From positions 5,871,595-5,935,594 of the forward strand of contig OX335644.1 in NCBI GenBank assembly GCA_946894095.1: a stretch of DNA of 64,000 bases, given 5' to 3'. The notes beneath the pieces are model-generated. The model had not been told where the DNA came from. It did not search any database and worked only from the letters and a program-made list of their open reading frames with translations. The translations under genes were made by a program, and so were the position numbers. This document shows positions 23,401-51,352 of the stretch, piece by piece (position 1 is the stretch's first letter; every line of letters starts with the position of its first letter). Origin of the DNA: Incurvaria masculella (lineage: Eukaryota > Arthropoda > Insecta > Lepidoptera > Incurvariidae).

Positions 23401-23718
23401 GCATGAGCCGGCGCACTTGCGTCTTCAGTATTACGTCCTCTGCTTGCGTCACCCTCTTTCGTTGACGACGAAGTCTGCAGTGCAAGTGAATGAGTGAGAT
23501 CATCTGATGATCGGGAACGCTCGTACGCTGAGTCACTGAACGCCAACACGGCTCGTGGGAGACGTAGGACGCAAGTTCCGCGCCCTTTCTTTAGCAGTTG
23601 GCTAGTGTTTCCTAGTCACAGAATAGGTATATGATAGAAGGCGTATACCAAAGGCATACGCTCTCATGTATTTTACCTAGCGTCCCTCTATTTATACGTT
23701 CTCTTTCTCTTATTACAG
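20500..23718. other. No gene established upstream of Myo31DF exon E1
   Basis: Contains a small hairpin (21046-21080, AAAATTTTACTAG mirrored), a SINE B fragment (23060) and short ORFs. The missing N-terminal myosin exon was looked for here and not identified; one phase-compatible but dissimilar candidate is discussed in findings (22375-22430). Confidence 0.45.
23060..23190 (-). mobile_element. SINE family B body fragment
   Basis: Minus-strand fragment with GGCTACATTGCACTTG, ACACGGACATTGCC and GATGGTATCAACCCGGGTGG. Tail and head missing. Confidence 0.6.
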
Positions 23719-23899
23719 ATTTCAAAGCAATCGCATCTATACATATATCGGTGAGGTGCTCGTCTCCGTGAACCCGTACAAGACGCTTAACATATACGAT
23801 GCGGCGCACATGGCGCAGTACCGCGGCCGAGAGATGTTCGAGGTGCCGCCGCACGTGTACGCCGTCGCCGACGCGTGCCAGAGGCTCCTCCGGCAACAG
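23719..23899 (+). CDS. Myo31DF: Myo31DF exon E1 (start of motor domain)
   Basis: Encodes residues 1-60, starting [20 protein letters not shown], the conserved N-terminal motor segment of class I myosins, and ending CQRLLRQQ. The acceptor is strong: a T-rich tract runs into AG at 23717-23718. The donor GTAGGAACT starts at 23900. The first base (a) completes a codon from the preceding exon; the exon ends in phase 0. The 3' two thirds of this exon, plus its donor, is the template of the tandem array that follows. Confidence 0.95.
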
Positions 23900-26800
23900 G
23901 TAGGAACTGAGAACAGATAGCTGCAAGCTAGGGGAGGGCCAAACAGGACGCAAAACATGTACGATGCAGCGCACGAGGCACAGCTCCGCGGCCGCGAGAG
24001 GTTCGAGGTGCCGCCGCACGTGTACGCCGTCGCCGATTCGTGCCAGAAGCTCCTCCGGCAACAGGTAGGAACTGAGAACAGATAGCTGCAAGCTAGCGGG
24101 GGCCACACGGGACGCAAAACATGTACGATGCAGCGCACGAGGCACAGTACCGCGGCCGCGAGAGGTTCGATGCGTGTTAGAGGCTCCTCCGACAACAGGT
24201 AGGAACTGAGGACAGATAGCTGCAAGCTAGGGGAGGGCCAAACAGGACGCAAAACATGTACGATGCAGCGCACGAGGCACAGCTCCGCGGCCGCGAGAGG
24301 TTCGAGGTGCCGCCGCACGTGTACGCCGTCGCCGATTCGTGCCAGAAGCTCCTCCGGCAACAGGTAGGAACTGAGAACAGATAGCTGCAAGCTAGCGGGG
24401 GCCACACGGGACGCAAAACATGTACGATGCAGCGCACGAGGCACAGTACCGCGGCCGCGAGAGGTTCGATGCGTGTTAGAGGCTCCTCCGACAACAGGTA
24501 GGAACTGAGGACAGATAGCTGCAAGCTAGGGGCCCAGTGTTGTCAGCCTCAGTGGCCCAGTGGCGCGACACTTCGGCGATCGCTCTCCGAAGTTAAGCAA
24601 CGCTGGGTCCGGTCTGGTCTTGGATGGGTGACCATTCGACCGTTGAGAGAGGCTGGCCGTGGTTCGGATTCCACGTTAAGCTGTAGGTCCCCTTCCTTAC
24701 TTACTAGGTGGTAGGGTTTATCCCGCCCGGGTTGGTACCATCGCATTGGATGAACGATGGTCAAAGCGGCAATGAAAATTGTCCGTGTTTTCCATCCAGT
24801 TCAATGTAGCCGTGCAATATAAGGAAGGTCCTGGCATGGCACCTAGTTCCCATGTGGTGTGTTGGGCTAATACCATGACCGAACTTGTGGTATTAGCCAT
24901 CCATGTCCAGTCACATAAAAAAAAAAAAAAAAAAAAGGGGGGGGCACAGAGGAGGCAAAACATGTTCGATGCAGCGCACGAGGCAAAGTACCGCGGCTAC
25001 GAGATGTTCGAGGTGCCGCCGCACGTGTACGCCGTCGCCGATGCGTGCCAGAGGCTCCTCCGGCAGCAGGTAGGAACTGAGCCTGATAGCTGCAAGCTAG
25101 GGGGGGCCACACGGGACGCAAAACATGTACGATGCAGCGCACGAGGCACAGTACCGCGGCCGGGAGATGTTCGAGGTGCTGCCGCACGTGTACGCCGTCG
25201 CCAATGCGTGCCAGAGGCTCCTCCGGCAACAGGTAGGAACTGAGCACAGATATCTGCAAGTTAGGGAACCCACACAGGACGTTTAACATATACGATGCAG
25301 CGCACTAGGCACAGTACCGCGGCCGCGAGATGTTCGAGGTGCCGCCGCACGTGTACGCCGTCGCCGACGCGTGCCAGAGGCTCCTCCGGCAACAGGTAGG
25401 AACTGAGGACAGATAGCTGCAAGCTAGGGGGCCTACACAGGGCGCAAAACATGTACGATGCGGCACACGTAGCACAGTACCGCGGCCGCGAGATGTTCGA
25501 GGTGCCTCCCCACGTGTACGCCGTCGCTGACGCGTGCCAGAGGCTCCTCCGGCAACAGGTAGGAACTGAGGACAGATAGCTGCAAGCTAGGGGAGCCACA
25601 AAGGACGCTAAATATGTACAATGCGAGGCACGTCGCACAGTACCGCGCCGGGAGATGCTCGAGGTGCCTCCGCACGTATACGCCCTTGCCGACGCGTACC
25701 ATAGGCTCCTCTGGCAAGAGGTAGAAACTGAGGACAGATAACTGCAAGCTAGGGGGGCCACATAGGACGCTAAACATGTACGATGTCAGTCTCGGTAGCT
25801 CAGTGTGCGACGCCTTGCGAATCGATAAGCTGGGGCAGCACCTTTGAGCGCGGTTAGGTTCTGGGCGAGGTTCTGGGTGGGTGACCATTCTCAACCGTTG
25901 AGGCTGGCCGTGGTTCGGATTCTGCCTTACTTACTAGGTGGTAGGGTTAATCCCGCCCGGGTTGGTACCATCGCATTGAAAGAACGTAGGTCGAAGCGGC
26001 AATGAAAATTGTCCGTGTTTTCCATCTAGTTCAATGTAGCCGAGCAATATAAGGAAGGTTCTGGCATGGCACCTAGTTCCCATGTGGTGTGTTAGGCTAA
26101 TATCTGACTGTCAGTTCGGTATTAGCCATCCATGTCCAATTACATTAAAAAAATGTGGGGCACGTGGCACAGTACCGCAGCCGCGAGATGTTCGAGGTGC
26201 CACCGCACGTGGACGCAGTCGCCGACTCGTGCCAGCAGCTTCTCCGGCAACAGGTACTGAGACCCGCCTGCAACAAGCGAGGGGGGCCAGACAGGTCGCT
26301 TAAGGTCGGCCCGTAAGCACCTGAAAATTTCGCCTCCCATACAAACGTAGTTTACTAATCATTTGAAAACCAATGTTCCAACTTACTTGATATTTGGTAT
26401 CTAACATTAGGCTACAAATATCTGTGTCTGCATGCCTTTGTTTTTTCGGTTAATGTATTCTGGGTCAAACCATAGAGAAAACAAAATTCGTATGAAGATT
26501 TTCTTTTTGCTTTCATTTCATTCGGTTTGGATTTTTCAAAAAAACAAAAGCATGCAGACACAGATATTTGTTACCTGATATTAGATATTAAATATCAATT
26601 TAATTGGAATAGCGGTTTCCAAATTATTAGTAAACTACGTTTGTATGGGGAGCATAGCTTACGGGCCGTTCTTAACATATATTTTACGATGCGGCGCATA
26701 TAATACAGTACCACGGCCGCGAGATGTTCGAGGTGCCGCCGCACGAGTATGCTGCCGTCACCGACGCACGCCTGCAGCTCCTCCGGCAACCTCAAACTTC

Positions 26801-29800
26801 GAAGGGACGTATGGTCTCCTTGTGTATTATTGTAGAACCTTCTTCGCAATGTGGCTGCGATGTATCCTCCAAACTGGCGGCCTTGAATTGAATTTGAAAA
26901 CGCACTTGGCCAGCCCGCATGGTTCTTGCAGCCCACAACGTTCAAAAACTTGTATTTCATGCCAATTTTTGGTAAATTATGAGATTTAAATTCGTGTACA
27001 CATGTTCCAGAGAGTACTTGGACACAATTTAAGCATGATGCAAGTTCAGTATGATAAAATTAATACATGGTTTATACGAGGAAGTGAGGCCATTTGACTG
27101 CTCTAAAGTCATATAATGTCATAACCTTGTAGGAAGCAAGGCTTCCTTATTTGGTTAATGGTTTCCTGTCGGAACACATTGTGTCATACCATATCCATAT
27201 CGCACCATTTTACTACAGTCATGGAGTTTGTCAATATTGCTGGCTCAATCCACTGAAGCACACAGACACACACAATAATCACATAAAACCTTCAGATACG
27301 AACAAAACGTTTCAATGTCAACACATAATGATTCTTAGCTTGAGTTATAGGCTCGAGTTGTGGTTGTAATTTTTTTTAAGAGGATATTCAGAAGAAAGTT
27401 ATTAAAGTTTTTTGTTTACATCAATTTCAATAATAATTTCCCAAAAACCGGCCAAGTGCGAGTAGGACTCGCACACGAAGGGTTCCGTACCATCGTAAGG
27501 GATTAAAAAAAAACATTTTTTTTGTATGGGGCATTATTTTATTTGTTGTAATAGCTGCAAAATAAATACATTATCAATAAAAATTTCAGCTTCCTACCTG
27601 TTACGGTTCATGAGATACAGCCCTGTGACGGACGGACGGACGGACGGACGGACAGCGGAGGCTTAGTAATGGGGTTCCGTTTTTACCCTTTGGGTACGGA
27701 ACCCTAGAAAATGAACATACTGGCCGTTCGACAACGTGGTTTTCTCCGTTGTGGCTCCAGGGTAGAGATTAATGTGTGACGTTGGCTAACGTGTCTCCGT
27801 TGTGGTTCCAAGGTAGAGATTCATTTGCGACATTGGGTAACGTTTCTTCTTTGTGGTTCCAGGGCAGAGACACGTGCGTCCTCATCACCGGCGAGTCGGG
27901 CTCGGGCAAGACGGAGGCGTCAAAGTTCATAATGAAGTACATCGCCGCCAACACCACCCAAGTGCACAGAGAGTACATAGACAGGTGTGTCCTCGACCGT
28001 TTATCTCGTGGCGGTCCCACGTCCACGGTTATATCTGGTCGCGTCGCAAGCAACTTGGCCGCTATGAATTGACCTGTGAGGCTTGTTGAAGTTATTTTGA
28101 CTTTGCAACCGATCCTCTAAATCCTGCCGAGAGTACAACCTTCAAACATGGTGTGAACAAGGACCGGGCCGGCCGGCGAGGCGTCGATGTGAGGCTCTGG
28201 CGTACGCCATATGTCGCGGTTAACATATACAAAATGGACAAGAGATGTTAGGGGGTAACTTACCCACCCTCTAAACCTGACCTTCCACCCCGTGAGTCAT
28301 AATTTCGATTCAAATTAGGTAATCGATATTTATCTACAGACATTCCTGACAAAAATCTGGTTACGCCCATCATAACAGTCATAGATGACTAATGTGATGC
28401 CTGCCTATTAGTAATGTAAACCACGACATAAATGGCATGCACCAGACTGTTCACCAAGAGATGCCCGGCGACGCACGTTGGCTTTGGAACTTTTTCGGGG
28501 GCTGCGCAAACCATGCTGATCTACCAAGTGCGTTACATTCCGTATCAAAGGCCCCAACTTTTATTTTTGGGAAAATACCTCGACATCGGATCGGTTGGTT
28601 CCTGTAGGAGGAATTAATACAGTGTGAGGGTGCATTCTCTGTCTTTTGCACCTTAAACGACGTTAAAATTATATCACATCGCATTCCCGAAGGAAAAAGG
28701 TGTCATGCCAGGGCCATCCCTTTATTGAAGAATGTTTACATCGATCTGGACAGAAAAACAAGATTTTTTTATTGCTGCTTCGACCACCTTCAATGGCATT
28801 ATTCATTGATTGAAAATACTAATGACAGGTCAGGTGGACAATATTGTTTTCAACTTATTTCACTGCTGCCACTCACTAATACAGGGAATTTTCTGATGTG
28901 TCATCTAGGCCTTTATGTTGGCGATAGTAGAAATAATGAACCCTGGTAGAACTGAACTATATCCACCACCCGCTACTGAGCAACGCAGGTAGATAGGTTT
29001 TATATCAGTTACCTACATTCTGATAACATTATCTATATGAAAATGTATCAGTTGAGTTGTATGAAATATGGAGGTGGCGGGTTGTAAGTAGTTAATAAAT
29101 TGTCGTTTTATGCCGATTACTCCGATACGTTCAGCTCTGCAAGCATTTGAGGACAAATCACTTCAATTATTACACGATATCTGAGGGAACCAATGCGACC
29201 TTGGCGGTCTAGCAAAAAATAATACTTTTATGTCTCTTACATCATGCAATTTTAAACCCAATGTAGGTAGGTCTAAGGTAGATTTAAGGCGGCCCAACCC
29301 GGCGGGCCTAACTCATTCGCGGGCACGGTACAAAACCGTGCTGTTGCGCTCTGGGACCTTTTCTGTTTCAAAGAATAAGACAGGCTCCGTGATGAGGAAG
29401 ATGCAACATGTCCACAAAAAAGACAATGTGCATAGTGTATGATTTGGTAAGATTTACGAAAATTTTAATTTCAAAACAACTTATAGCTAAAAGTAAACCA
29501 CGACCGCTGTAGTCAAAAATCTAATAAAAACCAAATAGATCATATATCTTGATTAAATAAGCTATGTCTGATGACTAATCTTTTTACGATGTTCTTACTT
29601 TATCATTGCGTAATCCACCTCCAAAGTTATCGTATAAAACGCGCGAAAAATTCGAACTTTCGGACCTTATAACTTAGAAACTAAACACAATTTTACAATG
29701 CCAATGGTCATCAGACATCTAGTTCGATCAAATAAAGCTATTTTAAGGAAAATTTTGGATCTCTGTCAAGAAATATGGGCGTGATCTTCTTTCCCCTTTT

Positions 29801-32800
29801 GTATGGGGAGATGAGCGGGTTGGGCCACCTTAAGGTCTAGGGTACATTTAATTTTGTGAAAGTCTAACTTTTAGAATGGTCCGTAACTCGGGGGTATGCG
29901 GCGACTTGCATTTCCATGTCCAGGGTGTAAATTCCCGCCCCTTTTATGCACCATTTTGTTTCTCTATTTGAGTTGGATAAGTGCATTTCGTTACAAATGT
30001 GTGTAAGCTATTCTATGGCGTGGAATCCATGTAAAATTGTGGGTTTGAACACCGTTAAATTACTTTCTATCAAATGTTGTTCTTCGCTCTATTGGATAAA
30101 CAAAATTTTTGTTATAATTATCATTAAAATTGTGCTTACAGGGTTAAAAACGTGCTGATACAGTCAAACTCGATCCTAGAAGCGTTTGGGAATGCGAAGA
30201 CGACCCGCAACGACAATTCGTCGCGGTTCGGGAAGTACATGGACATCCACTTCGACTACAAGGGCGACCCGGTCGGCGGCCACATCAGCAACTACCTGCT
30301 GGAGAAGAGCCGCGTCATCCGGCTGCAGCCGGGCGAGCGGAACTTCCACGCCTTCTACCAGGTGAGCCCGTCTAGACCCACGTGCTGATACAGTCGAACT
30401 CTATCCTAGAAGTGTTCTTATCCGTCCCATATGTGCAAACAATACTCGACGTAAGACCCTATTTGCGCTTTGTAGCACAGCAGTGTTTTAATACTATTCA
30501 TTTATTGAGTGATGTAATCTATGTACGTAAAGAATGGCTCACGAAACAATGTGTTGTGGTGAAGATACCGCAGAAAATGAGCAATAGGTTTACATATGGC
30601 TTACATTGCCATTCTGCCCTCACTGTTTACAGCAGAACTCACATATTTCTGCAGTGAATGATGGTCGTGTGTAAAGGATGGACATTTTTTCTCATCTCAA
30701 AAAACGTATCCATCCATTGAATAGTCGTCTTTTATTGCAAGAAGAAAATTACTTGACCTAGAGAATTTAGCAGAGCATTTACGGTCTGACATTTATCAGA
30801 AACAAGACTGTAAGGAAAACTAGAACTAGCGAAACATAGAACTAGCTTGCTCACTATACATTATTCCAACAGACTATTTAGTACTGCTGTGCTTTCTACT
30901 AAATAAATTAGATTGCCCATTTCAATCCGCCCTCTTAACCATTACAGTGGAACCCAAAGGTCACCTGAAAGAAATTTCATCGATGGGTAAGCCTATCTTT
31001 GCGCCCCACATAATATGTTGTTATTGAAAATAACAATAATTGATTGAAGTGACAATTAACAGTGGTCCATATTTTCCATCAATTTCAATGTGAAAGGCTC
31101 ATAAAGGAAAGGTCCTGTGCATAGCACCTATACTTCCTTCGAGAATTACTAATGTCATGATGGTGGGTCTGGTATTACCCATCCATGTCACATAATACTG
31201 TACATATCCAGGATGATTCTGCAAAGGGTCATACATTCAGTTAATTGTTCTAGAAGACAAATTAAAACTTTTATTCTTTGACTAGTTATTGCACTGAATG
31301 AAAAGATGGTCAAAACGGCAATGAAAATTTGTCCATATTTTCCATCCAGTTCAGTGTAGCCGTGCTCATAAAGGACGATCCTGGCATGGCACCTAAGTCC
31401 TTCGGGAATAGAATTGTATTGTATTGTTTATTCATTATCCATAGACAGTACAATCCGATTGATTTGTCATATTTTAACATTGGCAAAACACAACACAGCG
31501 AAGAAGTACTGGCAAGAAACTAGTGTTACAAAAGTGTTACTCCATTTTTTCATTTAAGGTAAAACATGCGGATTGCGGTGTGTTGGGCTGGTACGGTAGG
31601 CATGGTACTGGCCATCCATGTCCGGTCACATAATAAAAAAATACCTGACGCTTGCGCAGTTCCTGAGCGGTGCGGGCGCCCTCACGAAGAAGTTCGGCCT
31701 GTCGTCGGGCGCCTCGTACAAGATCCTCGGCAGCGAGCGGCCGGCGGCGACCGACGGCAAGCTGTTCTCGCTCACCAACAGCGCGTTCACCGCACTCGGA
31801 TTCGAGCAGTCCGTCGTCGAAGACATATGGAGCATCGTGGCGGGCGTCATACTGCTGGTGAGTTCCTATCACTGAAGAGAAAGGAAGAAGTGGCATGTGC
31901 TCGATGTCACTTTGACCATACAATTGTATGGGAATTTGGCCAACCGTCTTATGCCACACAGTCGATACATAGCAACCGCGTGCAAATGTGCTCTAAAAAT
32001 GCATTTGTCAAGTCAGTTCGCACAAAAACCTTTCAATACGTTCACAACTATGTGTGCATGTGGCATGTACGTTTATGTTGGGTTGTTACTTTTGAAAATT
32101 GGAGAAAGTGACAGGGTTGGTAGGTTTTAAAAATTTGAGACACCAATTTTGTCACGCTGGTTCAGGCCGTGAGCCAGGCCATAATGGTCCCTTTTTTCGC
32201 TTTTTGCGACGGGACCTTAAGAAATAAACAATTCACCAATCCATGTGAACGAGTAAAAGGGCAGTGCGCGCGCAGGGCGAGGTGACATTCGTGGGCGGCG
32301 GCGACGCGGGCGAGCTGCGGCTGGCGGGCGGCGCGGGCGGCGCGTGCGCGGCGCTCGGCGTGCCCGCGGAGCGGCTGCGCGCGGCGATGGCGGGCCGCGT
32401 GCTCGCCGCCGGCGGCGACCTCGTCAGCAAGGAGCACACGCTCACCGACGCCGAGTACACGCGCGACGCGCTCGCCAAGGCCGCATACGACCGCCTCTTC
32501 ACCTGGATCGTTCAGCAGGTTCACTTTCAGCGTCATACCCTCACCCTTACACACATAACAACACTACCACAAACACATAACGAAATCTATATCTGTACTA
32601 AAATGTACTAAATAAAGCTGTAGTTTCTTAGGGTTCCGTACCCAAAGGGTGAAAACGGAACCCTATAACTAAGTCTCCGCTGTCCGTCCGTCCGTCCGTC
32701 TGTCATAGGGCTGTATCGCATGAACCATAATAGGTAGGCAACTGAAATTTTCACAGAGTGTGTATTTATGTTGCCGCTATAACAACAAATAGGTAAAATA

Positions 32801-35800
32801 AAAAAAATAAAAAATTAAAGGGTGATCCCATACAAAAAACCTATTTTTTTTTGTTAAATCTTGTACGATGGTTACCCTTCGTGTGCGAGTGCGACTCGCA
32901 CTTGGCCGTTTTTTTTTATTGAACACATTCTAGTCCAGCCGCTGAGAGAATAAACTTTTGGCGTCTGTCAGTTAGCAATGACTAGCGACCAAAGGTGTAG
33001 AGTTGTTTTTTTATTGAACTAATTCTAGTCCAGCAGCTGCTGGACTAGAATGCGTTCTAGCGACGGACAATATGCAAGTAACACTGATATTTGATATGCA
33101 TATATAGGAACTCTAATATTTTTACCAGAAATATCTAAGTAATAATCATATTAGACTACTTGCCTTCGCGTGTTCGGTTTGGGCGTAGGTTTATAATATT
33201 ATTAACCTAATTAATATATCATATTATTACCACATTAGAAATAAAAACATATAAAATTAAATGTTTGTGCCCCAGTATTTTTGGCACATCACTACAAAAA
33301 AATATTGGTTAAATTAACTAATGTAAGAGCTACATAATTATATAATACTACTTTGTTAAAAATCTCCATCTCCATCTCTCATCTGTTCCACAACTATGAT
33401 GCAGATAAACAAAGCGATCGACGTGCCGAGCGGCACCTACAAAAATACTCTGATCGGCGTCCTGGACATCTACGGCTTCGAGATTTTCGACATCAACAGC
33501 TTCGAGCAGTTCTGCATCAACTACTGCAACGAGAAACTGCAGCAACTCTTCATTGGTGAGGGCATTGGAAAAAATATATATATATTGAATGTTTTTTAAT
33601 GGATGTTAAATCAAAGACTTTTATGTCTTGACAGTATTATTATTATATAGACTAACAGCTGCAAGCTGATGCATGTACATTGAGTGCACATTTTTTTTTT
33701 GCAAGTGTTCATTATATTTAATTTAATTATATTATTATTTTTAGTATTTTTTACATGATTTTCAAATTGTTTTTGAAACTGTTCACTGAGCCAGCACTTA
33801 TGACTTCCGGCTCCGGCATCCGGCAGCTTGTTCCAGTGTTCCACAACACGGTTTGACAGAAAGTGTTTCCTCGGGTTGGAATTTAAGCTATTATGATTGA
33901 GTTTCAGAAAATTTCCACAAAGTCTTTGGTCAGTGTTCGGGGAATACATAGCTCTAAGGTTAGGTACGTCATAATGTCTATTTCATATTTTGAAGGTTTC
34001 AGTTATGTCGTCTCGCTGTCTTCGCTCCTCCAGTGAAGCTTCTTTCAAAATAAAGTTCCAGTTCATGTCATTAAGCCATTTATGATGTATACTCCAGGAA
34101 CTTTAGCCTTTAATCAGCACTTAGAAAAACATTAAATCCGAAATGCGATTTTTTTTCTCATAAACGTAGTATTTCATATGGACGTGTGTACATTAAGTTT
34201 GCAACATTTTGGGGGGTCCGGAAGATAGAAATAAAATATGAAATATGTCTAAAAAATGATATCTCCTAAACAAATATTTAGAAATGTTTTTTTAAAATGT
34301 TATATGTTAGCTAATTTTAGGTGTAATATTACTGTGAATTTGCAACAATTTCTTATTTACGGAACTGTGTAATTTTTTTTTTGTACTTTTAATATCTGTA
34401 ATATTTAATATCTGCAAAGCAAATAATGAAAATTCTATTTTATTTTCTGAAATTGGAAACTGACCGCAAAATTCTGTGAAATTTGTAAAATATTGCAAAT
34501 ATTAGAAGCACATTTTTTTTCATTTATAATGCTTACATTCACACAAAAGCTAAACAAAAAATTCGAAATACGTATAAAATCGTTCGTTGTATAGTTTCTA
34601 AAGAATTTAATTTGCTTTTACATATTCTAGAAAGAAATATAGCAATAGCAAGTTAGGTTCGCGGCATAGATTTTTTTTAGTAAAAACTTTTTTTTAAATA
34701 CATTTTCGTAATTACAAAATTGTTGCAAATTCACAGTTACATTACGCCTTAAAAGACTTAACATATCAATTTTTTTAATACCGTTTCTAAATATTTGTTT
34801 AGGAGATATATATTTTTTAATACATTTTAATTTTTTTTTCTATCTTCCGTGCCCCGCTAAATGTTGCAAACTTAATGTAAGCATATGAACATGAAATTAT
34901 ATATTTCTGAGAAAAAAAAAATCATTTCGGATTTCATGTGCTTCTCAAACCGTATCTACCCCGGTCTAGTATGCAAAAGACCAACATCGTCACTCTTGTC
35001 ATTTTGAGCAACTGAGCCCTGATACAGGGTATCAGGGTGTCACGCCAGGCCATGCACAGGAAAATAAAATTATATAATATTTTGAAAATTACAGTGTCGT
35101 GTTCCATGGGAATCTTTCAGAGGATTGTTTCAAGAGGAGAGCTCAGCTGAGTCGATTGTTTTATATAATTGGATGTTTTGAAAATCCCAATGAAGTTCTG
35201 ATGCCCTATTGGGGTTTAAATCAACTGAGCTACGCCACTCACGAGCACGGAGCGACGTGACACAGGATACCCAGCGGTTGACTTTATTCAATGATGTTTT
35301 ATTTATCATGTGTGTTTGTTTCACATGGAACAGAGTTGGTGCTAAAGCAGGAGCAAGAGGAGTACCAGCGCGAGGGCATCACGTGGACACCCATCGACTA
35401 CTTCAACAACCGCGTCATCTGCGAGCTCGTGGACGCTCCGCACAAGGGCATCATCTCCATCATGGACGAGGCCTGCCTCAACCCCACTAAGGTTAGTAGC
35501 CAGAGGGCATCACATAGACATGCATCGAATGTATCAATGTATGTATCTCGCAAAATTTATTTTTTTGCCTATATCAACCCTTTTTCTCTTCTCCATCTAT
35601 GCTAATAACATCTGCATAATTAACCTCTCCATTCTTAAGAACGGCCCGTAAGCTATACTCCCGATACAAACGTAGTTTACTAATCATTTGGAAACCGCTG
35701 CTCCAATTAAATTGATATTTAATATCTACATTATATCAGGTAACAAATATCTGTGTCTGCACGCTTTTGTTTTTTCGAAAAATGCAAAACCGAATGAAAT

Positions 35801-50800: not shown

Positions 50801-51352
50801 AACTTTTGGCAATGCCACTGAGTTAATAATGAGTAATACATTCTGAGTTAACCGATCTACAATTTTCTAGCATTCATGTCGCCAGATGGCCACTCTTTGA
50901 GAAAATTAAACCATTTTTCAGATCTAGGTCTAATGTTTTGAGATCTTTGCAATTTTGTTGGCAAATGGCCACCTGGAAACAGCCATACCGACAAACGCTT
51001 ATTGCGTACCATTTCAGAAACACGCCTTGAGGACCCATTTTCTTAACATAGTCGTATTTTTATCGCCCGCGCTCATCGCGCACGTGCACAACGTCGTCAC
51101 CAAACATCCCGCATCAGCGCGCGCTTGAATGGCATGCCACCGTGATACTTCTACAAATGCGATGGTGTCAGGTTGGCGAACGCAGAGCTGCCCGTGGAGG
51201 TGGAGAGCGGCGAGACGACGCGCTGCACGCTCGGCGGCAAGCAGCGCGCGCTGCAGCTCCCCGCGCCCACGCCCGTGTCCTCGCCCACCGCCGCACCCTT
51301 CACGCACGCGCACAACGTCATCACGTACCATCCCGCGTCGGCACGCGCGTGA
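23719..51352 (+). CDS. Myo31DF: Class I unconventional myosin, Myo1D/Myo31DF type (17 exons, N-terminus missing)
   Basis: Actin-based motor ATPase that links F-actin to membranes; in Drosophila the orthologue sets left-right asymmetry (established knowledge). Joined exons: 23719-23899, 27863-27984, 30142-30361, 31660-31857, 32276-32518, 33405-33555, 35334-35491, 36668-36789, 37712-37862, 38480-38626, 39329-39555, 40546-40695, 41241-41423, 46389-46542, 46953-47102, 47497-47720, 51172-51352. All have AG/GT borders and consistent phases, giving 986 residues plus TGA. Window residue numbers: P-loop GESGSGKT 70-77, switch I NAKTTRN 118-124 and NDNSSRFG 124-131, switch II DIYGFE 342-347, DALAK near 305, IQ neck about 659-698, TH1 tail from about 750. 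The family is about 1000-1020 residues, so about 30 N-terminal residues are missing. The first base of exon 1 completes a codon begun in an unseen exon. Assignment to Myo1D rather than Myo1A/C rests on the closeness of motor, neck and tail to insect Myo31DF as I recall it. Confidence 0.93.
24533..24936 (+). mobile_element. SINE family B copy with 5S rRNA-like head
   Basis: The head at about 24575-24632 contains CCGAAGTTAAGCAACG and TTGGATGGGTGACC, which resemble the internal promoter region of animal 5S rRNA. The body (about 24655-24915) is the common family B body (AGGTGGTAGGG, CCCGCCCGGGTTGGTACC, GGTATTAGCCATCCATGTCC) and a 20-base A-tail ends it. It is inserted into a G-run of the exon E1 array, with G-runs on both sides as likely target duplication. 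Confidence 0.85.
25785..26153 (+). mobile_element. SINE family B copy with 5S-like head, inserted in array unit 10
   Basis: The head has GTAGCTCAGTG and GGTTCTGGGTGGGTGACC, a diverged version of the head at 24533. The family B body and a short A-tail follow. It splits the tenth copy of the exon E1 repeat after its codons for MYDV. Confidence 0.82.
26304..26671 (+). mobile_element. piggyBac-type MITE (TTAA target duplication), copy 2
   Basis: The 368-bp element is flanked by TTAA at 26300-26303 and 26672-26675. Termini are inverted (CGGCCCGTAAGC and GCTTACGGGCCG) and a longer inverted segment with CATACAAACGTAGTTTACTA follows inside. The interior has a second mirror pair (ATATCTGTGTCTGCATG and its complement), so the whole can fold into one hairpin. 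It interrupts the last unit of the exon E1 array. No transposase. Confidence 0.85.
26796..26990 (+). mobile_element. Non-LTR retrotransposon C-terminal remnant
   Basis: Begins right after the last array unit with [23 protein letters not shown], matching the [20 protein letters not shown] motif at 41070. Short and broken by a stop. Confidence 0.55.
27444..27706 (+). mobile_element. SINE family A copy in Myo31DF intron 1
   Basis: Complete copy with head AAAACCGGCCAAGTGCGAG, five GGAC repeats and GGGTACGGAACCCTAG end. It ends about 30 bp before the triplicated exon E2 acceptor unit. Confidence 0.83.
27735..27862 (+). repeat. Triplicated acceptor region of Myo31DF exon E2
   Basis: A unit of about 53 bp (GTGGTTCCAGGGTAGAGA type) occurs three times, ending at the true acceptor. 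The upstream versions have CTCCAGGGTAGAGAT and TTCCAAGGTAGAGAT where the real one has TTCCAGGGCAGAGAC; the first keeps an AG and would read Gly-Arg-Asp-stop, the second has AAG. Confidence 0.8.
27863..27984 (+). CDS. Myo31DF: Myo31DF exon E2 (P-loop)
   Basis: Encodes residues 61-100 plus two bases. It holds the ATP-binding P-loop [11 protein letters not shown]; the usual class I form is GESGAGKT, so one Ala is Ser here. Acceptor AG is at 27861-27862 and donor GT at 27985. Two decoy copies of the acceptor region lie just upstream (see separate repeat entry). Confidence 0.95.
28676..28795 (-). mobile_element. SINE family B body fragment in Myo31DF intron 2
   Basis: Minus-strand CATTCCCGAAGGAAAAAGGT, GTCATGCCAGGGCC and TATTGCTGCTTCGACCACC. 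Both ends missing. Confidence 0.65.
29620..29830 (+). repeat. Interspersed repeat family C, copy 3 (Myo31DF intron 2)
   Basis: Close copy of 635-850; ends GAGCGGGTTGGGCCACC followed by TTAA. Confidence 0.8.
29876..30060 (+). mobile_element. SINE family B head and 5' body fragment in Myo31DF intron 2
   Basis: Diverged tRNA-like head with CAGGGTGTAAATTCCCGCCC in the B-box position, then TTTGAGTTGGATAAG and GGAATCCATGTAAAATTGTG. Confidence 0.6.
30142..30361 (+). CDS. Myo31DF: Myo31DF exon E3 (switch I)
   Basis: Encodes residues 101-174: [19 protein letters not shown], then switch I ([13 protein letters not shown]), [14 protein letters not shown] and [10 protein letters not shown], all hallmark motor motifs. 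The first base completes Arg 101 (ag+g). Donor GTGAGC follows CAG at 30361. A short partial copy of this exon's beginning lies about 18 bp after the donor. Confidence 0.95.
30379..30418 (+). repeat. Partial copy of exon E3 start, 18 bp after its donor
   Basis: About 40 bp beginning ACGTGCTGATACAGTC repeat the exon E3 bases coding [12 protein letters not shown] with a few substitutions (it would read [12 protein letters not shown]). It has no acceptor and is cut off at its 3' end. Confidence 0.88.
31050..31200 (+). mobile_element. SINE family B 3' fragment in Myo31DF intron 3
   Basis: GTCCATATTTTCCATC, CTCATAAAGGAAAGGTCCTG, ATGTCATGATGG and TATTACCCATCCATG followed by a short A-rich end. Confidence 0.65.
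31290..31640 (+). mobile_element. SINE family B copy with an insertion, ending at the exon E4 acceptor
   Basis: The first part ends CACCTAAGTCCTTCGGGAAT (about 31412); about 160 bp of other sequence intervenes; the element resumes GCGGTGTGTTGGGCTGG at 31575 and ends GTCCGGTCACATAATAAAAA at 31640. The inserted piece resembles 39000-39100 (TTTATT...ATCC.TAGACAGTACA). Confidence 0.75.
31660..31857 (+). CDS. Myo31DF: Myo31DF exon E4 (motor, upper 50K region)
   Basis: Encodes 66 residues (175-240) from [13 protein letters not shown] through [22 protein letters not shown]. The sequence is more diverged from the fly protein than the other motor exons, but phase and position fit. The acceptor AG (31658-31659) sits about 19 bp after the A-rich tail of a SINE and has no good pyrimidine tract. 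Donor GTGAGT at 31858. Confidence 0.9.
32276..32518 (+). CDS. Myo31DF: Myo31DF exon E5 (motor, TEDS/DALAK region)
   Basis: Encodes residues 241-321, from [12 protein letters not shown] to [10 protein letters not shown], with DALAK near residue 305. Counting 16 residues back from DALAK, the usual rule for the TEDS regulatory site, lands on Asp; that assignment is an inference. The first half is very GC-rich and Ala/Gly-rich compared with the fly sequence. The acceptor region (ending gcgcgcgcag) is poor in pyrimidines. Donor GT at 32519. Confidence 0.92.
32628..32917 (-). mobile_element. SINE family A copy in Myo31DF intron 5
   Basis: Minus-strand copy: TTAGGGTTCCGTACCCAAAG, (GTCC)n run and GCGACTCGCACTTGGCCG. 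Confidence 0.83.
33022..33051. repeat. Perfect 30-bp palindrome
   Basis: ATTCTAGTCCAGCAG followed directly by its reverse complement. A half-site version (CATTCTAGTCCAGCCGCTG) lies 80 bp upstream at about 32927. In Myo31DF intron 5. Confidence 0.9.
33405..33555 (+). CDS. Myo31DF: Myo31DF exon E6 (switch II)
   Basis: Encodes residues 322-371 plus one base: [10 protein letters not shown], then switch II and relay region [20 protein letters not shown] and [10 protein letters not shown]. These are among the most conserved residues of any myosin. Acceptor GCAG at 33401-33404, donor GTGAGG from 33556. Confidence 0.96.
33643..34060 (-). mobile_element. 3' fragment of a related non-LTR retrotransposon
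   Basis: The minus strand codes [20 protein letters not shown] then EHWNKLP, the C-terminal end of ORF2 of the 42-46 kb family, with frame changes upstream. It ends with the same 3' hairpin type (CAGCTTGCAGCTG) and an (ATT)-rich run. In Myo31DF intron 6. Confidence 0.85.
34117..34953. mobile_element. Foldback-like MITE with about 250-bp inverted arms
   Basis: Arms about 34117-34362 and 34700-34953 are inverted copies (shared CCGAAATG, CATTAAGTTTGCAACATTT, ATCTCCTAAACAAATATTTA, ACTGTGAATTTGCAACAATT) at roughly three quarters identity by eye. The AT-rich centre has no ORF. In Myo31DF intron 6. Confidence 0.82.
35334..35491 (+). CDS. Myo31DF: Myo31DF exon E7 (relay helix to lower 50K)
   Basis: Encodes [18 protein letters not shown], then [15 protein letters not shown] and [15 protein letters not shown] (residues 372-424). 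The first two bases complete Glu. Donor GTTAGT at 35492. Just after the donor there is a short, mutated copy of this exon's own middle. Confidence 0.95.
35499..35531 (+). repeat. Partial copy of exon E7 interior, just after its donor
   Basis: AGAGGGCATCACATAGACA and following bases resemble the exon E7 bases CGAGGGCATCACGTGGACA that code EGITWTPID. It is short (about 33 bp) and mutated, so chance similarity is possible but unlikely. Confidence 0.65.
35639..36011. mobile_element. piggyBac-type MITE (TTAA target duplication), copy 3
   Basis: Flanked by TTAA at 35635-35638 and 36012-36015. Termini GAACGGCCCGTAAGC and GCTTACGGCCCCACC; same internal mirror structure as the copy at 26304. It is in the opposite orientation or simply near-palindromic. 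In Myo31DF intron 7. Confidence 0.85.
36352..36575 (-). mobile_element. SINE family B copy in Myo31DF intron 7
   Basis: Minus-strand tail-to-body: TATGTAACTGAACATGGATG, ACTAGGTGCCATGCAAGG, GATGGAAAACACGGACA and ACCACCCCGGGCGGG. Head missing. Confidence 0.75.
36668..36789 (+). CDS. Myo31DF: Myo31DF exon E8 (motor)
   Basis: Encodes [32 protein letters not shown] and VDFRI plus two bases of Thr (residues 425-465). Acceptor GACAG ends at 36667; donor GTGAGT at 36790. A minus-strand SINE family B copy ends about 100 bp upstream. Confidence 0.95.
36940..37266 (+). mobile_element. SINE family B copy with tRNA-like head in Myo31DF intron 8
   Basis: Head TGTAGGGCCTAGAGAACTTG, B-box-like GGGTTCAAATGCTC (about 36983), CTTTCTCTTTCC, GACCTGTTCCATGG, then tail GGTATTAGCCATCAATGTCC. 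The centre of the body is shortened. Confidence 0.75.
37712..37862 (+). CDS. Myo31DF: Myo31DF exon E9 (HYAGDV region)
   Basis: Encodes [32 protein letters not shown] and [11 protein letters not shown] (residues 466-515); the first base completes Thr 465. HYAGDV is a universal myosin motor motif. Acceptor GCAG at 37708-37711, donor GTATCA at 37863. Confidence 0.95.
38318..38335 (+). repeat. (GT)n microsatellite
   Basis: GTGTGTGTGTGTGTGTG in Myo31DF intron 9. Confidence 0.85.
38480..38626 (+). CDS. Myo31DF: Myo31DF exon E10 (actin-binding and SH1 region)
   Basis: Encodes [20 protein letters not shown] and [20 protein letters not shown] (residues 516-564); FYVRCVKPN is the conserved SH-helix region. 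Phase 0 at both ends. Acceptor TTTAG at 38475-38479, donor GTAAGT at 38627. Confidence 0.95.
39329..39555 (+). CDS. Myo31DF: Myo31DF exon E11 (converter)
   Basis: Encodes [40 protein letters not shown] and YGHTKLFI plus two bases of Arg (residues 565-640): the converter and end of the motor. The closeness to the insect Myo31DF sequence here is the main reason for the gene symbol. Donor GTGAGG at 39556. Confidence 0.95.
39633..39653 (-). repeat. Short interstitial telomere-type repeat
   Basis: Four CCTAA/TTAGG units in a row (complement of the insect telomere motif) in Myo31DF intron 11. A two-unit TTAGG run also occurs at 10441-10455. Confidence 0.7.
39719..40431 (-). mobile_element. Internally deleted non-LTR retrotransposon fragment
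   Basis: The minus strand is open for 165 codons with [20 protein letters not shown] and [11 protein letters not shown], the RT finger region, then [15 protein letters not shown]. The lower-coordinate end (39719-39745) has the complement of AATTTGAGTTTGAGTTTG, a 3' end I associate with lepidopteran LINEs. Palm and later motifs are missing. Intron 11. Confidence 0.75.
40546..40695 (+). CDS. Myo31DF: Myo31DF exon E12 (IQ neck)
   Basis: Encodes residues 641-689. An IQ motif is clear ([19 protein letters not shown], pattern Q-x3-RG-x3-R) and a second degenerate IQ starts with [11 protein letters not shown] motifs bind calmodulin or myosin light chains. The acceptor is preceded by a G-rich, pyrimidine-poor stretch. 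Confidence 0.95.
40795..41160 (+). mobile_element. Decayed RT C-terminal fragment of a non-LTR retrotransposon
   Basis: The + strand reads [19 protein letters not shown], the post-palm motif of CR1/Jockey-type RTs, then after stops and frame changes [20 protein letters not shown], a C-terminal motif of such elements. Intron 12. Confidence 0.78.
41241..41423 (+). CDS. Myo31DF: Myo31DF exon E13 (second IQ and start of tail)
   Basis: Encodes [27 protein letters not shown] and [20 protein letters not shown] plus DQWPQL (residues 691-750). The W-P-P and R-W-x-A patterns match the linker and the start of the TH1 tail of Myo31DF. The donor is GTGGGT at 41424; the reading frame would run into a TAG soon after, which supports splicing here. 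The following intron carries the full-length retrotransposon. Confidence 0.93.
41710..41984 (-). mobile_element. SINE family A copy joined to family B tail, Myo31DF intron 13
   Basis: Complete minus-strand copy; its head (CACTTGGCCGGTTTTTT) abuts the A-tail of the minus-strand SINE family B copy at 41985, the same junction as at 6074-6080. Confidence 0.83.
41985..42050 (-). mobile_element. SINE family B tail, left of the nested LINE
   Basis: Minus-strand TATGTAACTGTGCCTGG, then ATATTAACCCAACACACTGC. Continues at 46115 beyond the inserted retrotransposon. Confidence 0.8.
42255..45077 (-). CDS. Retrotransposon ORF2: endonuclease-reverse transcriptase, 940 residues
   Basis: APE-type endonuclease followed by reverse transcriptase, the enzymes of target-primed reverse transcription. 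Endonuclease motifs: N14, E41 (TETHL), GDFN at 151-154 and SDH near 229. RT motifs in order: [79 protein letters not shown]-terminal [20 protein letters not shown] is typical of CR1/Rex/L2-like families. I start it at ATG 45077; an in-frame GTG lies one codon earlier. The start overlaps the ORF1 stop (TGATG), suggesting termination-reinitiation. No inactivating change is visible. Confidence 0.93.
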   Translation of the reverse strand: MLSNITEFTFFYTNLASLTAKFDLLLIEINKLKPTCIIITETHLTPDVGDSIISISGYTLFRQDRGGGKKWGGVAIYISNYHKNIPIVAKRNTIYHNNNVEALWLDLKYNNFNILLGGVYRPTHYTLEESDKQLFDLIKQASEAGTTLILGDFNLPDIHWPPKKFDGYNTLHDKFIEMYTSSNLHQLVNNITRKRNQQESLLDLIMCNDENLCTKLEYHPNVGKSDHLVILASVQIIENRGCYYPLKRLRPNYFKADYKSIATMLKEANLNNKHTDIIEAWNEFGSIAKNALNTHVPLSKQTVISANRPWINRDILELVKKKKQLWRLYQLVKSDKAYAAYRNINNNIVSVTRQARRSFETHIVETGPKSFYGYIRKQLSSKVGIPPALRAHNSTDIVTDHRGIANVFAKQFEKSHVRECDGPMPQIGVPRVENSIETVEFSPAAVYKSLQSFRNNTAMGPDSLPAVFLKECSTELCDHLAHIMTISFECGKLPTDWKEAIVTPIYKKGDKFDPANYRPISLTSIVCKAMEKIIISEIRAFLAHENVILEEQHGFVPRRSTVTNLLKCVDKWTCDWNERRPTDIIYLDYEKAFDRVPTKRLLHKLEHFGFRGNLLSWFRDFLTNRRFRVRVGEDMSEPYQVLSGVPQGSVVGPVAFGVFLTDLGEITHLNFSLFADDTKFFANPIIAQQKIQDTLDKISGWTKEWLLSLNASKCTVLHLGPKNPHHSYWLDGKMIETVTTQHDLGVTISEDLKWETHITEVVKKANSLLYMIRKAFSYINTELFLKLYKAYVRPLLEYAFLIWNPYFRKDIDLVEGVQRRATKMIATLKKQSYEHRLKVLGLSTLEERRQRGDLIETYKILNDYYNLPNLKEMFTKNTNIHLRGHSLKLNHSASNSNPRKHFLVNRVVDSWNKLPEEVISAETVNGFKNRLDKHLKAIKK
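45077..45817 (-). CDS. Retrotransposon ORF1: cysteine-rich zinc domain plus coiled coil, 246 residues
   Basis: Nucleic-acid-binding structural protein of the element (role known from LINE families). Eight cysteines at residues 4, 7, 23, 26, 31, 34, 56 and 59 form a PHD/RING-like zinc module. A predicted coiled coil follows at about 65-95 ([20 protein letters not shown]), then an RRM/CTD-like part with [15 protein letters not shown] and RPLKLIM (about 115-180) as in L1/CR1 ORF1 proteins. It starts at ATG 45817 and its TGA (45079-45077) overlaps the ORF2 ATG. No frameshift or stop is seen. Confidence 0.88.
   Translation of the reverse strand: MASCYKCDKKIQKVDEKNPKISCYGCERAVCVKCSGLTATELRVVTLTAQSLRYLCPDCEVGLRQLPSLKKLINDLSEEIGGLRREIAEMKKSRGEALNLDMVVEELEDRRLRSSNVILFGIPESSAEDAEQRKQEDASNVERALTALPQPPRPRALIRLGKPKPGSTTPRPLKLIMTGKREAIAVLKNRSKLPSSVSAKSDLTVYQQDKLRRLREELAERVAKGEDDITIKYVNNCPKIVQIPKK
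46115..46205 (-). mobile_element. SINE family B body, right of the nested LINE
   Basis: Resumes the same SINE: AAGGAATTAGGTGCCATGCC, GAGCACAGCTACATTGAAC and GGGCAACACGGACAATTTG. With 41985-42050 it reconstructs the normal order of the family body. Confidence 0.8.
46389..46542 (+). CDS. Myo31DF: Myo31DF exon E14 (TH1 tail)
   Basis: Encodes [26 protein letters not shown] and [17 protein letters not shown] (residues 752-802). This is the basic part of the TH1 domain that binds acidic phospholipids. The first base completes Lys 751. Acceptor GATCAG ends at 46388; donor GTACTA at 46543. Confidence 0.93.
46597..46900 (+). mobile_element. SINE family B copy with well-preserved tRNA-like head, Myo31DF intron 14
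   Basis: TAGCTTAGTGGCGCGAGG (A-box-like, 46606) and GGGTTTAAATCCTC (B-box-like, 46648) with normal tRNA spacing, then CTACTAGGTGGTAGGG, CCGCCCGGGTTAGTACC and GGTCGAAGCGGCAATG. Tail truncated about 50 bp before exon E15. Confidence 0.82.
46953..47102 (+). CDS. Myo31DF: Myo31DF exon E15 (TH1 tail)
   Basis: Encodes [35 protein letters not shown] and [11 protein letters not shown] (residues 803-852), the PH-like beta strands of the TH1 domain. Phase 0 at both ends. The acceptor has a good T-run and lies about 50 bp after a SINE family B copy. Confidence 0.94.
47497..47720 (+). CDS. Myo31DF: Myo31DF exon E16 (TH1 tail with Gly/Pro insertion)
   Basis: Encodes residues 853-926: [30 protein letters not shown], then a low-complexity insertion ([10 protein letters not shown], eight Gly in a row, then APPPPSRP), then [15 protein letters not shown]. 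In the fly protein, as I recall it, the matching loop is short and without poly-Gly. Two bases of Leu 927 end the exon; donor GTACGT at 47721. Confidence 0.93.
47805..47945. mobile_element. 141-bp MITE with 38-bp inverted arms in Myo31DF intron 16
   Basis: Arms 47805-47842 and 47908-47945 (TTACCAATAAACCCAGATC and its complement at the far end) differ at about five positions. No ORF. Confidence 0.82.
48230..50740 (-). mobile_element. 5'-truncated non-LTR retrotransposon related to the 42-46 kb element
   Basis: It carries the C-terminal end of the endonuclease, the whole RT and the C-terminal domain, then a 3' UTR with the palindrome CAGCCTAGGCTG and a (ATTT)n terminal run at 48235-48260. The 5' end is lost at about 50740. 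It lies antisense within Myo31DF intron 16. Confidence 0.88.
48360..50660 (-). pseudogene. Truncated ORF2 (endonuclease C-terminus and reverse transcriptase) with one in-frame stop
   Basis: Two open stretches, 50660-49704 (318 residues) and 49703-48360 (447 residues), are one frame divided by a single TAG where the intact relative has a Trp ([22 protein letters not shown] against [19 protein letters not shown]). Motifs: [55 protein letters not shown] and the catalytic FLADDSKFF (LADD in place of FADD), then [20 protein letters not shown]. The frame stays open upstream to about 50735. Otherwise well preserved, so a recent insertion. Confidence 0.9.
51065..51127 (+). pseudogene. Decayed copy of the end of terminal exon E17
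   Basis: Reading + strand it gives [20 protein letters not shown] then TGA, against [19 protein letters not shown] in the real exon 225 bp downstream. No acceptor or upstream exon frame is evident. It lies in intron 16, 45 bp before the true exon. Confidence 0.82.
51172..51352 (+). CDS. Myo31DF: Myo31DF terminal coding exon E17
   Basis: Encodes residues 928-986 and the TGA stop (51350-51352): [35 protein letters not shown], then [13 protein letters not shown]. The first base completes Leu 927. Its last 15 or so codons have a decayed copy just upstream at 51065-51127. Confidence 0.92.

What the first reader, a model, noticed from the sequence alone, without database searches (positions are those of the whole stretch)
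23719..26791. A myosin exon has become a 163-bp tandem satellite inside its own gene
The 3' 108 bases of Myo31DF exon E1, its donor site and about 50 bp of intron are repeated 11 times head to tail. The period is 163-164 bp. A 299-bp two-unit block is itself duplicated (23900-24198, 24199-24497). Intron and exon parts look equally conserved, so this is DNA-level amplification, not selection on protein. Each unit keeps the GTAGGAACT donor but no acceptor and no first third of the exon. The spliceosome must choose the first of about 12 near-identical donors. This looks like a coding-exon-derived satellite caught early, with later SINE and MITE insertions.
Basis: partly seen in the sequence, partly recalled or inferred. 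Interest (0 to 1): 0.92.

Follow-up and report, generated by a model that had tools for sequence, protein, structure and literature searches.

The report
Exon edge repeated inside neighbouring intron
In a moth or butterfly gene for a motor protein (myosin ID), the end of one coding exon together with its splice site has been copied eleven times into the next intron, and smaller copies of other exon pieces sit in the same gene, which resembles the "exon stuttering" recently described in chickens.

Summary
The array is real. Eleven diverged head-to-tail copies (spacing 162-165 bp, twice 134) of the 3' part of exon E1, its donor and about 33 bp of intron open the next intron of a lepidopteran unconventional myosin ID gene. 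Two SINE-like elements and a TTAA-flanked MITE interrupt it. A 299-bp dimer is duplicated with 1 mismatch. Divergence among copies is similar at the three codon positions and in intron, so no coding constraint shows. Extending E1 to any of the 8 downstream intact donors meets a stop 7 codons on. Corrections: 8 of 11 copies, not all, keep the donor; the exon part is longer and the intron part shorter than stated; 'satellite' is unproven, as the genome search did not complete. E1 meets the published sequence criterion for 'exon stuttering' of chicken dot chromosomes, here in an insect. Splicing, polymorphism and mechanism are untested.

The parts
23719..23899 (+). Exon E1 of the myosin ID gene (source exon)
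   Evidence: tblastn with 5 orthologs; E1+E2 aligns without gap in the two myosin-Ib alignments shown
23770..23932 (+). Source segment of the repeat: up to 130 bp of E1, donor GTAGGAACT at 23900, about 33 bp of intron
23933..24097 (+). Copy U01
24098..24231 (+). Copy U02 (30-31 bp internal deletion)
24232..24396 (+). Copy U03, identical to U01 over the compared core
24397..24532 (+). Copy U04, identical to U02 over the compared core; part of the duplicated 299-bp dimer
24533..24937 (+). SINE-like insertion ending in poly-A; its 3' part recurs in the window
24938..25100 (+). Copy U05
25101..25263 (+). Copy U06
25264..25426 (+). Copy U07, closest to E1 (4.7% different); keeps GAACCC and TTAACATATA of E1
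25427..25588 (+). Copy U08
25589..25751 (+). Copy U09, donor altered
25752..25785 (+). First piece of copy U10 (34 bp)
25786..26147 (+). Second, related SINE-like insertion, splitting U10 (ends approximate)
26148..26299 (+). Second piece of copy U10 (donor altered) and start of U11
26300..26675 (.). MITE, 19-nt terminal inverted repeats including TTAA, in the exon-derived TTAA of U11
26676..26790 (+). Copy U11, donor lost
27743..27844 (+). Two 51-bp copies of the intron's 3' end with acceptor region and the first about 8 nt of E2
   Evidence: 26-bp matches of 84.6% to the junction; alignment
27863..27984 (+). Exon E2
30380..30416 (+). 37-bp copy (92%) of the 5' part of exon E3 (30150-30186), about 18 nt after the E3 donor
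35503..35528 (+). Possible 26-bp copy (85%) of a part of exon E7 (35372-35397), about 11 nt after its donor; weak
   Evidence: 30.1 bits against a maximum of 26.5 in 340 shuffled comparisons
51067..51128 (+). 62-bp copy (79%) of the 3' end of the last exon (51291-51352) with its stop codon, in the preceding intron
   Evidence: not among the rows shown (36 bits or more) of the blastn-short screen

Best explanation
Local DNA-level tandem amplification of a splice-junction-spanning segment ('exon stuttering'), hidden inside the intron by splicing. Steps: (1) an initial tandem duplication joined the intron about 33 bp past the E1 donor back to E1 near position 23770 (joint seen; event inferred). 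(2) Unequal exchange or slippage multiplied the unit to at least 11 copies and later duplicated a two-unit block (block seen; process inferred). (3) Because each unit starts inside the exon and ends inside the intron, the outermost E1 with its real acceptor and first donor stays intact, so the copies are inherited as intron and decay neutrally (similar divergence at all codon positions shown; splice choice inferred). (4) SINE-like and MITE insertions interrupted the array (seen). The same gene shows a smaller repeat at the acceptor of E2 and single copies of pieces of E3, the last exon and possibly E7, so the gene as a whole seems prone to copying such pieces into adjacent introns (inferred). 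The array most likely has no function.
For: Eleven copies, none elsewhere in the window. Exon intact: 17 coding exons from E1 to the stop match orthologs (the N-terminal about 30 residues were not located). Unit-unit differences per site 0.141, 0.125, 0.187 (codon positions 1, 2, 3) and 0.128 (intron) over 9 units. Extending E1 to any of the 8 downstream GTAGGAACT donors reads into the same stop. Three residues of E1 that none of the 36, 36 and 39 covering orthologs has (N, D, L) are in 9 of 9, 9 of 10 and 11 of 11 copies that hold the codon (translations), so the copies come from this lineage's own exon. U01-U08 differ from each other by at most 11.5%, U09-U11 from all other units by 14-28%. 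In a screen modelled on the published one, 12 hits pass 42.1 bits, all in adjacent introns: 11 for E1, 1 for E3. A more sensitive run adds the last exon; 0 of 150 control segments reach that score.
Against: No RNA, long-read or population data. The near-identical 299-bp dimer could be an assembly duplication. The order-distance correlation is weak once the dimer copies are dropped (r 0.29, 1006 of 10000 permutations as high). Codon position 3 differs somewhat more than 1 and 2. Only E1 and E3 pass in the published style of screen; the last-exon copy passes only with the more sensitive settings, and the E2 repeat holds just about 8 nt of exon, below that screen's 20-nt limit. The excess over control segments may partly reflect slower decay of source exons; controls had 2.5-kb flanks against up to 4 kb, could overlap each other, and left out segments with over 10% dispersed-repeat mask and 23600-27900.
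Confidence: 0.8

Rival explanations
1. A young satellite DNA family that started from this exon and has spread or will spread in the genome.
For: Head-to-tail units, higher-order 299-bp dimer, distal units more diverged.
Against: Eleven copies at one locus, none elsewhere in the 64-kb window. Genome-wide copy number untested because the search did not complete.
Confidence: 0.1
2. Alternative or mutually exclusive exons: the copies are used as cassette exons or alternative 3' ends of E1.
For: 8 of 11 copies keep the donor; U01, U03, U05, U06 and U08 have no stop or gap in the E1 frame up to the donor. The SINE-like insertions bring acceptor-like sites (pyrimidine 0.89 and 0.72) upstream of unit donors.
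Against: No unit carries the E1 acceptor or its first 51 bp; the best acceptor-like site inside units has pyrimidine 0.67, although real acceptors of this gene range from 0.33 to 0.89 on that crude measure (7 examined); all 8 downstream donors read into a stop when E1 is extended to them. U02, U04 and U07 hold stops, U09 a one-base deletion, U02 and U04 a 30-31 bp deletion; codon positions show no clear constraint.
Confidence: 0.05
3. Assembly artefact (duplicated or misjoined reads).
For: The 299-bp blocks differ at 1 of 299 sites.
Against: Apart from the pairs U01/U03 and U02/U04, units differ from each other by 6.7-28% and carry private indels and three insertions, which misassembly would not create. 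At most the dimer duplication could be false.
Confidence: 0.05

Closest known systems
Exon stuttering (sequence stuttering) on chicken dot chromosomes, Hron et al. 2026, PMC12954441 (abstract, found passages and sections 7, 9 and 16 read)
   Same: Lateral part of a coding exon with its adjacent splice donor or acceptor copied in imperfect direct tandems through the adjacent intron; exon itself intact. Paper: 1-44 copies (median 4), exon part 20-187 bp (median 36), span 112-23,555 bp (median 1,751). Here 11 copies, exon part up to 130 bp, about 3.0 kb.
   Different: Insect, not bird; window GC 0.409, gene 0.436; array interrupted by inserted elements, whereas the paper calls the bird regions devoid of interspersed repeats; a duplicated 299-bp dimer; length variation between individuals untested.
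Tandem exon duplication / mutually exclusive exons (recalled, e.g. Dscam-type arrays)
   Same: Tandem copies of an exon in one gene.
   Different: Only the 3' part of the exon is copied, without its acceptor, and no coding constraint shows.
Intron gain by tandem genomic duplication (e.g. PMC4974935; title and start of abstract seen in the listing)
   Same: Tandem duplication of a segment that carries splice signals.
   Different: Here an existing intron grows; no new intron is made.
Satellite DNA with higher-order repeats (recalled)
   Same: Tandem units of about 163 bp and a dimeric block.
   Different: One small local array; no evidence of spread.

Membership tests
[quoted passage not shown]
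   11 copies of the E1 3' part in the following intron
Exon stuttering (PMC12954441) | BLASTN-short hit of at least 42.1 bits and 20 nt in an adjacent intron, above shuffled control | tested here: met
   E1: 11 hits, 50.1-186 bits; E3: 1 hit, 50.1 bits; 20 shuffles reach at most 28.2. The last exon and E2 do not pass in this form of the screen.
Exon stuttering (PMC12954441) | Copied source lies at the exon border and spans the splice site (more than 90% of cases within 1 base of the border in the paper) | tested here: met
   Met for E1. The E2 repeat spans the acceptor but holds only about 8 nt of exon; the E3 source starts about 8 nt inside the exon and its copy lies in the following intron, so E3 does not fit this feature.
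Exon stuttering (PMC12954441) | Coding exon itself unaltered | tested here: met
   E1 aligns without internal gap to the orthologs that cover it; one predicted protein, P0038, has extra sequence between E1 and E2, probably a gene-model error
Exon stuttering (PMC12954441) | Extensive length variation of the intron between individuals | not testable with these tools
   no population or read data
Exon stuttering (PMC12954441) | Association with GC-rich avian dot chromosomes (an association in the paper, not its criterion; 46 of its 236 introns lie elsewhere) | tested here: not met
   Lepidoptera; window GC 0.409, gene 0.436, array 0.61
Satellite DNA | Large arrays or many loci in the genome | tested here: inconclusive
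   one locus in 64 kb; genome search unanswered
Tandem (mutually exclusive) exons | Each copy has its own acceptor and donor | tested here: not met
   units start inside the exon; best acceptor-like site inside units has pyrimidine 0.67; 3 of 11 have no intact donor
Tandem (mutually exclusive) exons | Copies under coding constraint | tested here: not met
   differences 0.141, 0.125, 0.187 at codon positions 1, 2, 3 and 0.128 in intron

The most novel reading that the evidence does not exclude
Exon stuttering is not a bird peculiarity but a general route by which animal introns grow: duplications that span a splice junction are nearly invisible to selection because the outermost exon copy keeps working. 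In this gene the process hit both ends of one intron and several other exons, and the array may in turn feed changes back into the coding exon by gene conversion, which would account for three motor-domain residues that none of the 36-39 covering orthologs has and that the copies share.
Probability: 0.3. Interest if true: 0.75.

Novelty: new member of a known kind. Interest (0 to 1): 0.55.

Why it matters
It extends a form of genetic instability that its discoverers report from birds (plus gerbil genes, data not shown) to an insect, outside a GC-rich microchromosome, with signs of it at several exons of one gene. It is also a natural test of splice-site choice: nine donors identical over GTAGGAACT, eight of them over 18 nt, compete in one transcript, and extending E1 to any but the first brings a stop. 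The three insertions and the near-identical dimer help to order the events.

Tried and rejected
Protein-level selection on the copies was tested by codon position and not supported. Alternative exon use was examined through acceptor quality and reading frame and judged unlikely. A G-quadruplex motif (four runs of 3 or more G with loops of 1-7) in 23701-27900 was sought on both strands and not found. Rfam gave no match for the window at gathering scores nor for 24500-26160 at E 0.1, so my impression that the first SINE-like element has a 5S-rRNA-like head is unconfirmed. Literature searches gave one paper on exon stuttering; in the listings shown (10 of 16 papers, 8 of 17, the full lists in the others) I saw no insect case by title or start of abstract. 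They cover open-licence PMC papers only. Falling similarity with distance along the array stands out only if the dimer copies are counted. I found no way to compare the DNA with related species: the collections I could use hold prokaryotes, viruses and plasmids, and metagenome scans were capped at 0.

Full report
WHAT IS THERE. Exon E1 (23719-23899) encodes part of the motor domain of an unconventional myosin. A search with the joined exon translations (730 residues) scored 7978 candidates and listed 120; the first 31 rows, 27 named (all moths or butterflies; that placing of the genera is mine) and 4 unnamed, are 75-81% identical, most of the named ones called unconventional myosin ID or myosin-IA. 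Myosin ID is the family of Drosophila Myo31DF (recalled; row P0095 carries that name). tblastn with five orthologs places 17 coding exons in order from 23.7 to 51.35 kb; boundaries beyond E1 and E2 are approximate, and the N-terminal about 30 residues were not located. E1 joins E2 (27863-27984) without gap in the two alignments shown with solved myosin Ib, so the intron is 23900-27862.

THE ARRAY. The intron opens with 11 further copies of the E1 3' part, most with its donor and about 33 bp of intron. Spacings are 165, 134, 165, 134, 572 across the first insertion, then 163, 163, 163, 162. In the copy closest to E1 (U07) the match starts at 23770 and runs 130 bp to the exon end at 93%; the eight other matches of 101 bp or more start at 23778-23799. 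GTAGGAACT occurs nine times in the window, at E1 and eight copies; an 18-nt context is identical at eight of the nine. Copies differ from E1 by 4.7-16.7%. U01-U08 differ from each other by at most 11.5%, U09-U11 from all other units by 14-28%. The correlation of order with distance is r 0.47 (12 of 10000 permutations as high) with all 11 units and r 0.29 (1006 of 10000) without U03 and U04. The 299-bp block 23900-24198 recurs at 24199-24497 with one mismatch: a recent duplication or an assembly duplication.

INSERTIONS. Two related SINE-like elements (about 24533-24937 and 25786-26147) share parts with many other places in the window. A 376-bp element with 19-nt terminal inverted repeats that include TTAA (26300-26675) has a 93% copy at 35635-36016. 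It sits in the TTAA that unit U11 inherited from the exon, so it entered an existing copy (inference).

NO VISIBLE CODING CONSTRAINT. Over nine units, pairwise differences per site are 0.141, 0.125 and 0.187 at codon positions 1, 2 and 3, and 0.128 in the intron part; variable sites are 20 of 38, 15 of 38, 23 of 38 and 12 of 31. Position 3 is somewhat higher, but far from what I would expect of a conserved coding exon. U03 and U04 were dropped from these counts because they duplicate U01 and U02.

SPLICING (inferred). If E1 were extended to any of the eight downstream GTAGGAACT donors, translation would hit the same stop at 23918. In the acceptor-side repeat the first extra copy reads GGT AGA GAT TAA after its AG, also a stop (sequence). 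So only the outermost pair of sites gives the protein. Of 219 AGs examined in 23905-26800, the best inside units has pyrimidine 0.67 in the 18 nt before it; the SINE-like elements bring sites with 0.89 and 0.72. Seven acceptors taken as real range from 0.33 to 0.89 by the same measure, so it discriminates poorly, and some of those seven may be misplaced.

ORIGIN IN THIS LINEAGE. In the repeated part of E1, N, D and L at three positions occur in 0 of 36, 0 of 36 and 0 of 39 orthologs that cover them, and a fourth residue (A) in 3 of 36 (40 proteins, P0001-P0041 without the caddisfly P0032; 4 unnamed, a few species more than once). N is in 9 of 9, D in 9 of 10 and L in 11 of 11 copies that hold the codon (translations). 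The copies were therefore made after these changes, or exon and copies have exchanged sequence since.

MORE OF THE SAME IN THIS GENE. The acceptor end of the same intron carries two extra 51-bp units (27743-27844) of intron tail, acceptor region and about 8 nt of E2; the AG of the second unit is shifted by one base. A blastn-short screen modelled on the published one, with rows of 36 bits or more kept, gave 12 hits, all of 42.1 bits or more and all in adjacent introns: 11 for E1 and one for E3, whose 5' part is copied just after its donor; 20 shuffles reach 28.2 bits. A more sensitive run added the last exon (62 bp, 79%, 54.5 bits, stop codon included, in the preceding intron) and a weak 26-bp copy of E7 (30.1 bits; 340 shuffled comparisons reach 26.5). 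By that run 3 of 17 exons have copies at 42.1 bits or more against 0 of 150 control segments. The control is imperfect: 2.5-kb flanks against up to 4 kb, segments that may overlap, no segments with over 10% dispersed-repeat mask or in 23600-27900, and source introns decay faster than exons.

COMPARISON. The published phenomenon is exon stuttering on chicken dot chromosomes (PMC12954441; abstract, passages and sections 7, 9 and 16 read). [quoted passage not shown] Length variation between individuals, one of its three main features, could not be tested, and its chromosomal setting is absent: this is an insect, window GC 0.409. [quoted passage not shown]). In the listings of my searches I saw no insect case (calls named in Tried and rejected).

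VERDICT. A real, well-defined, probably functionless array; a new member of a recently described kind, in a distant branch of animals. The word satellite is not supported yet. Interest 0.55.

Noticed in passing
27743-27844: The acceptor end of the same intron has its own 51-bp tandem repeat spanning the intron-E2 junction, so both splice junctions of one intron are duplicated.
   Followed up: yes
30380-30416; 51067-51128; 35503-35528: Short local copies of parts of exon E3, the last exon and possibly E7 lie roughly 10-45 bp from splice sites, perhaps templated insertions.
   Followed up: partly
24707 and 25937: Both SINE-like insertions bring an acceptor-like site (TTACTTACTAG) upstream of unit donors, which could make cryptic exons.
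   Followed up: partly
24533-24660: By eye the first SINE-like element has a 5S-rRNA-like head; Rfam gave no match at E 0.1.
   Followed up: partly
42255-45817 and 48360-50660 (- strand): Long open frames that look by eye like a non-LTR retrotransposon (reverse transcriptase and an upstream frame) and a second one in two frames, inside two introns of the gene.
   Followed up: no
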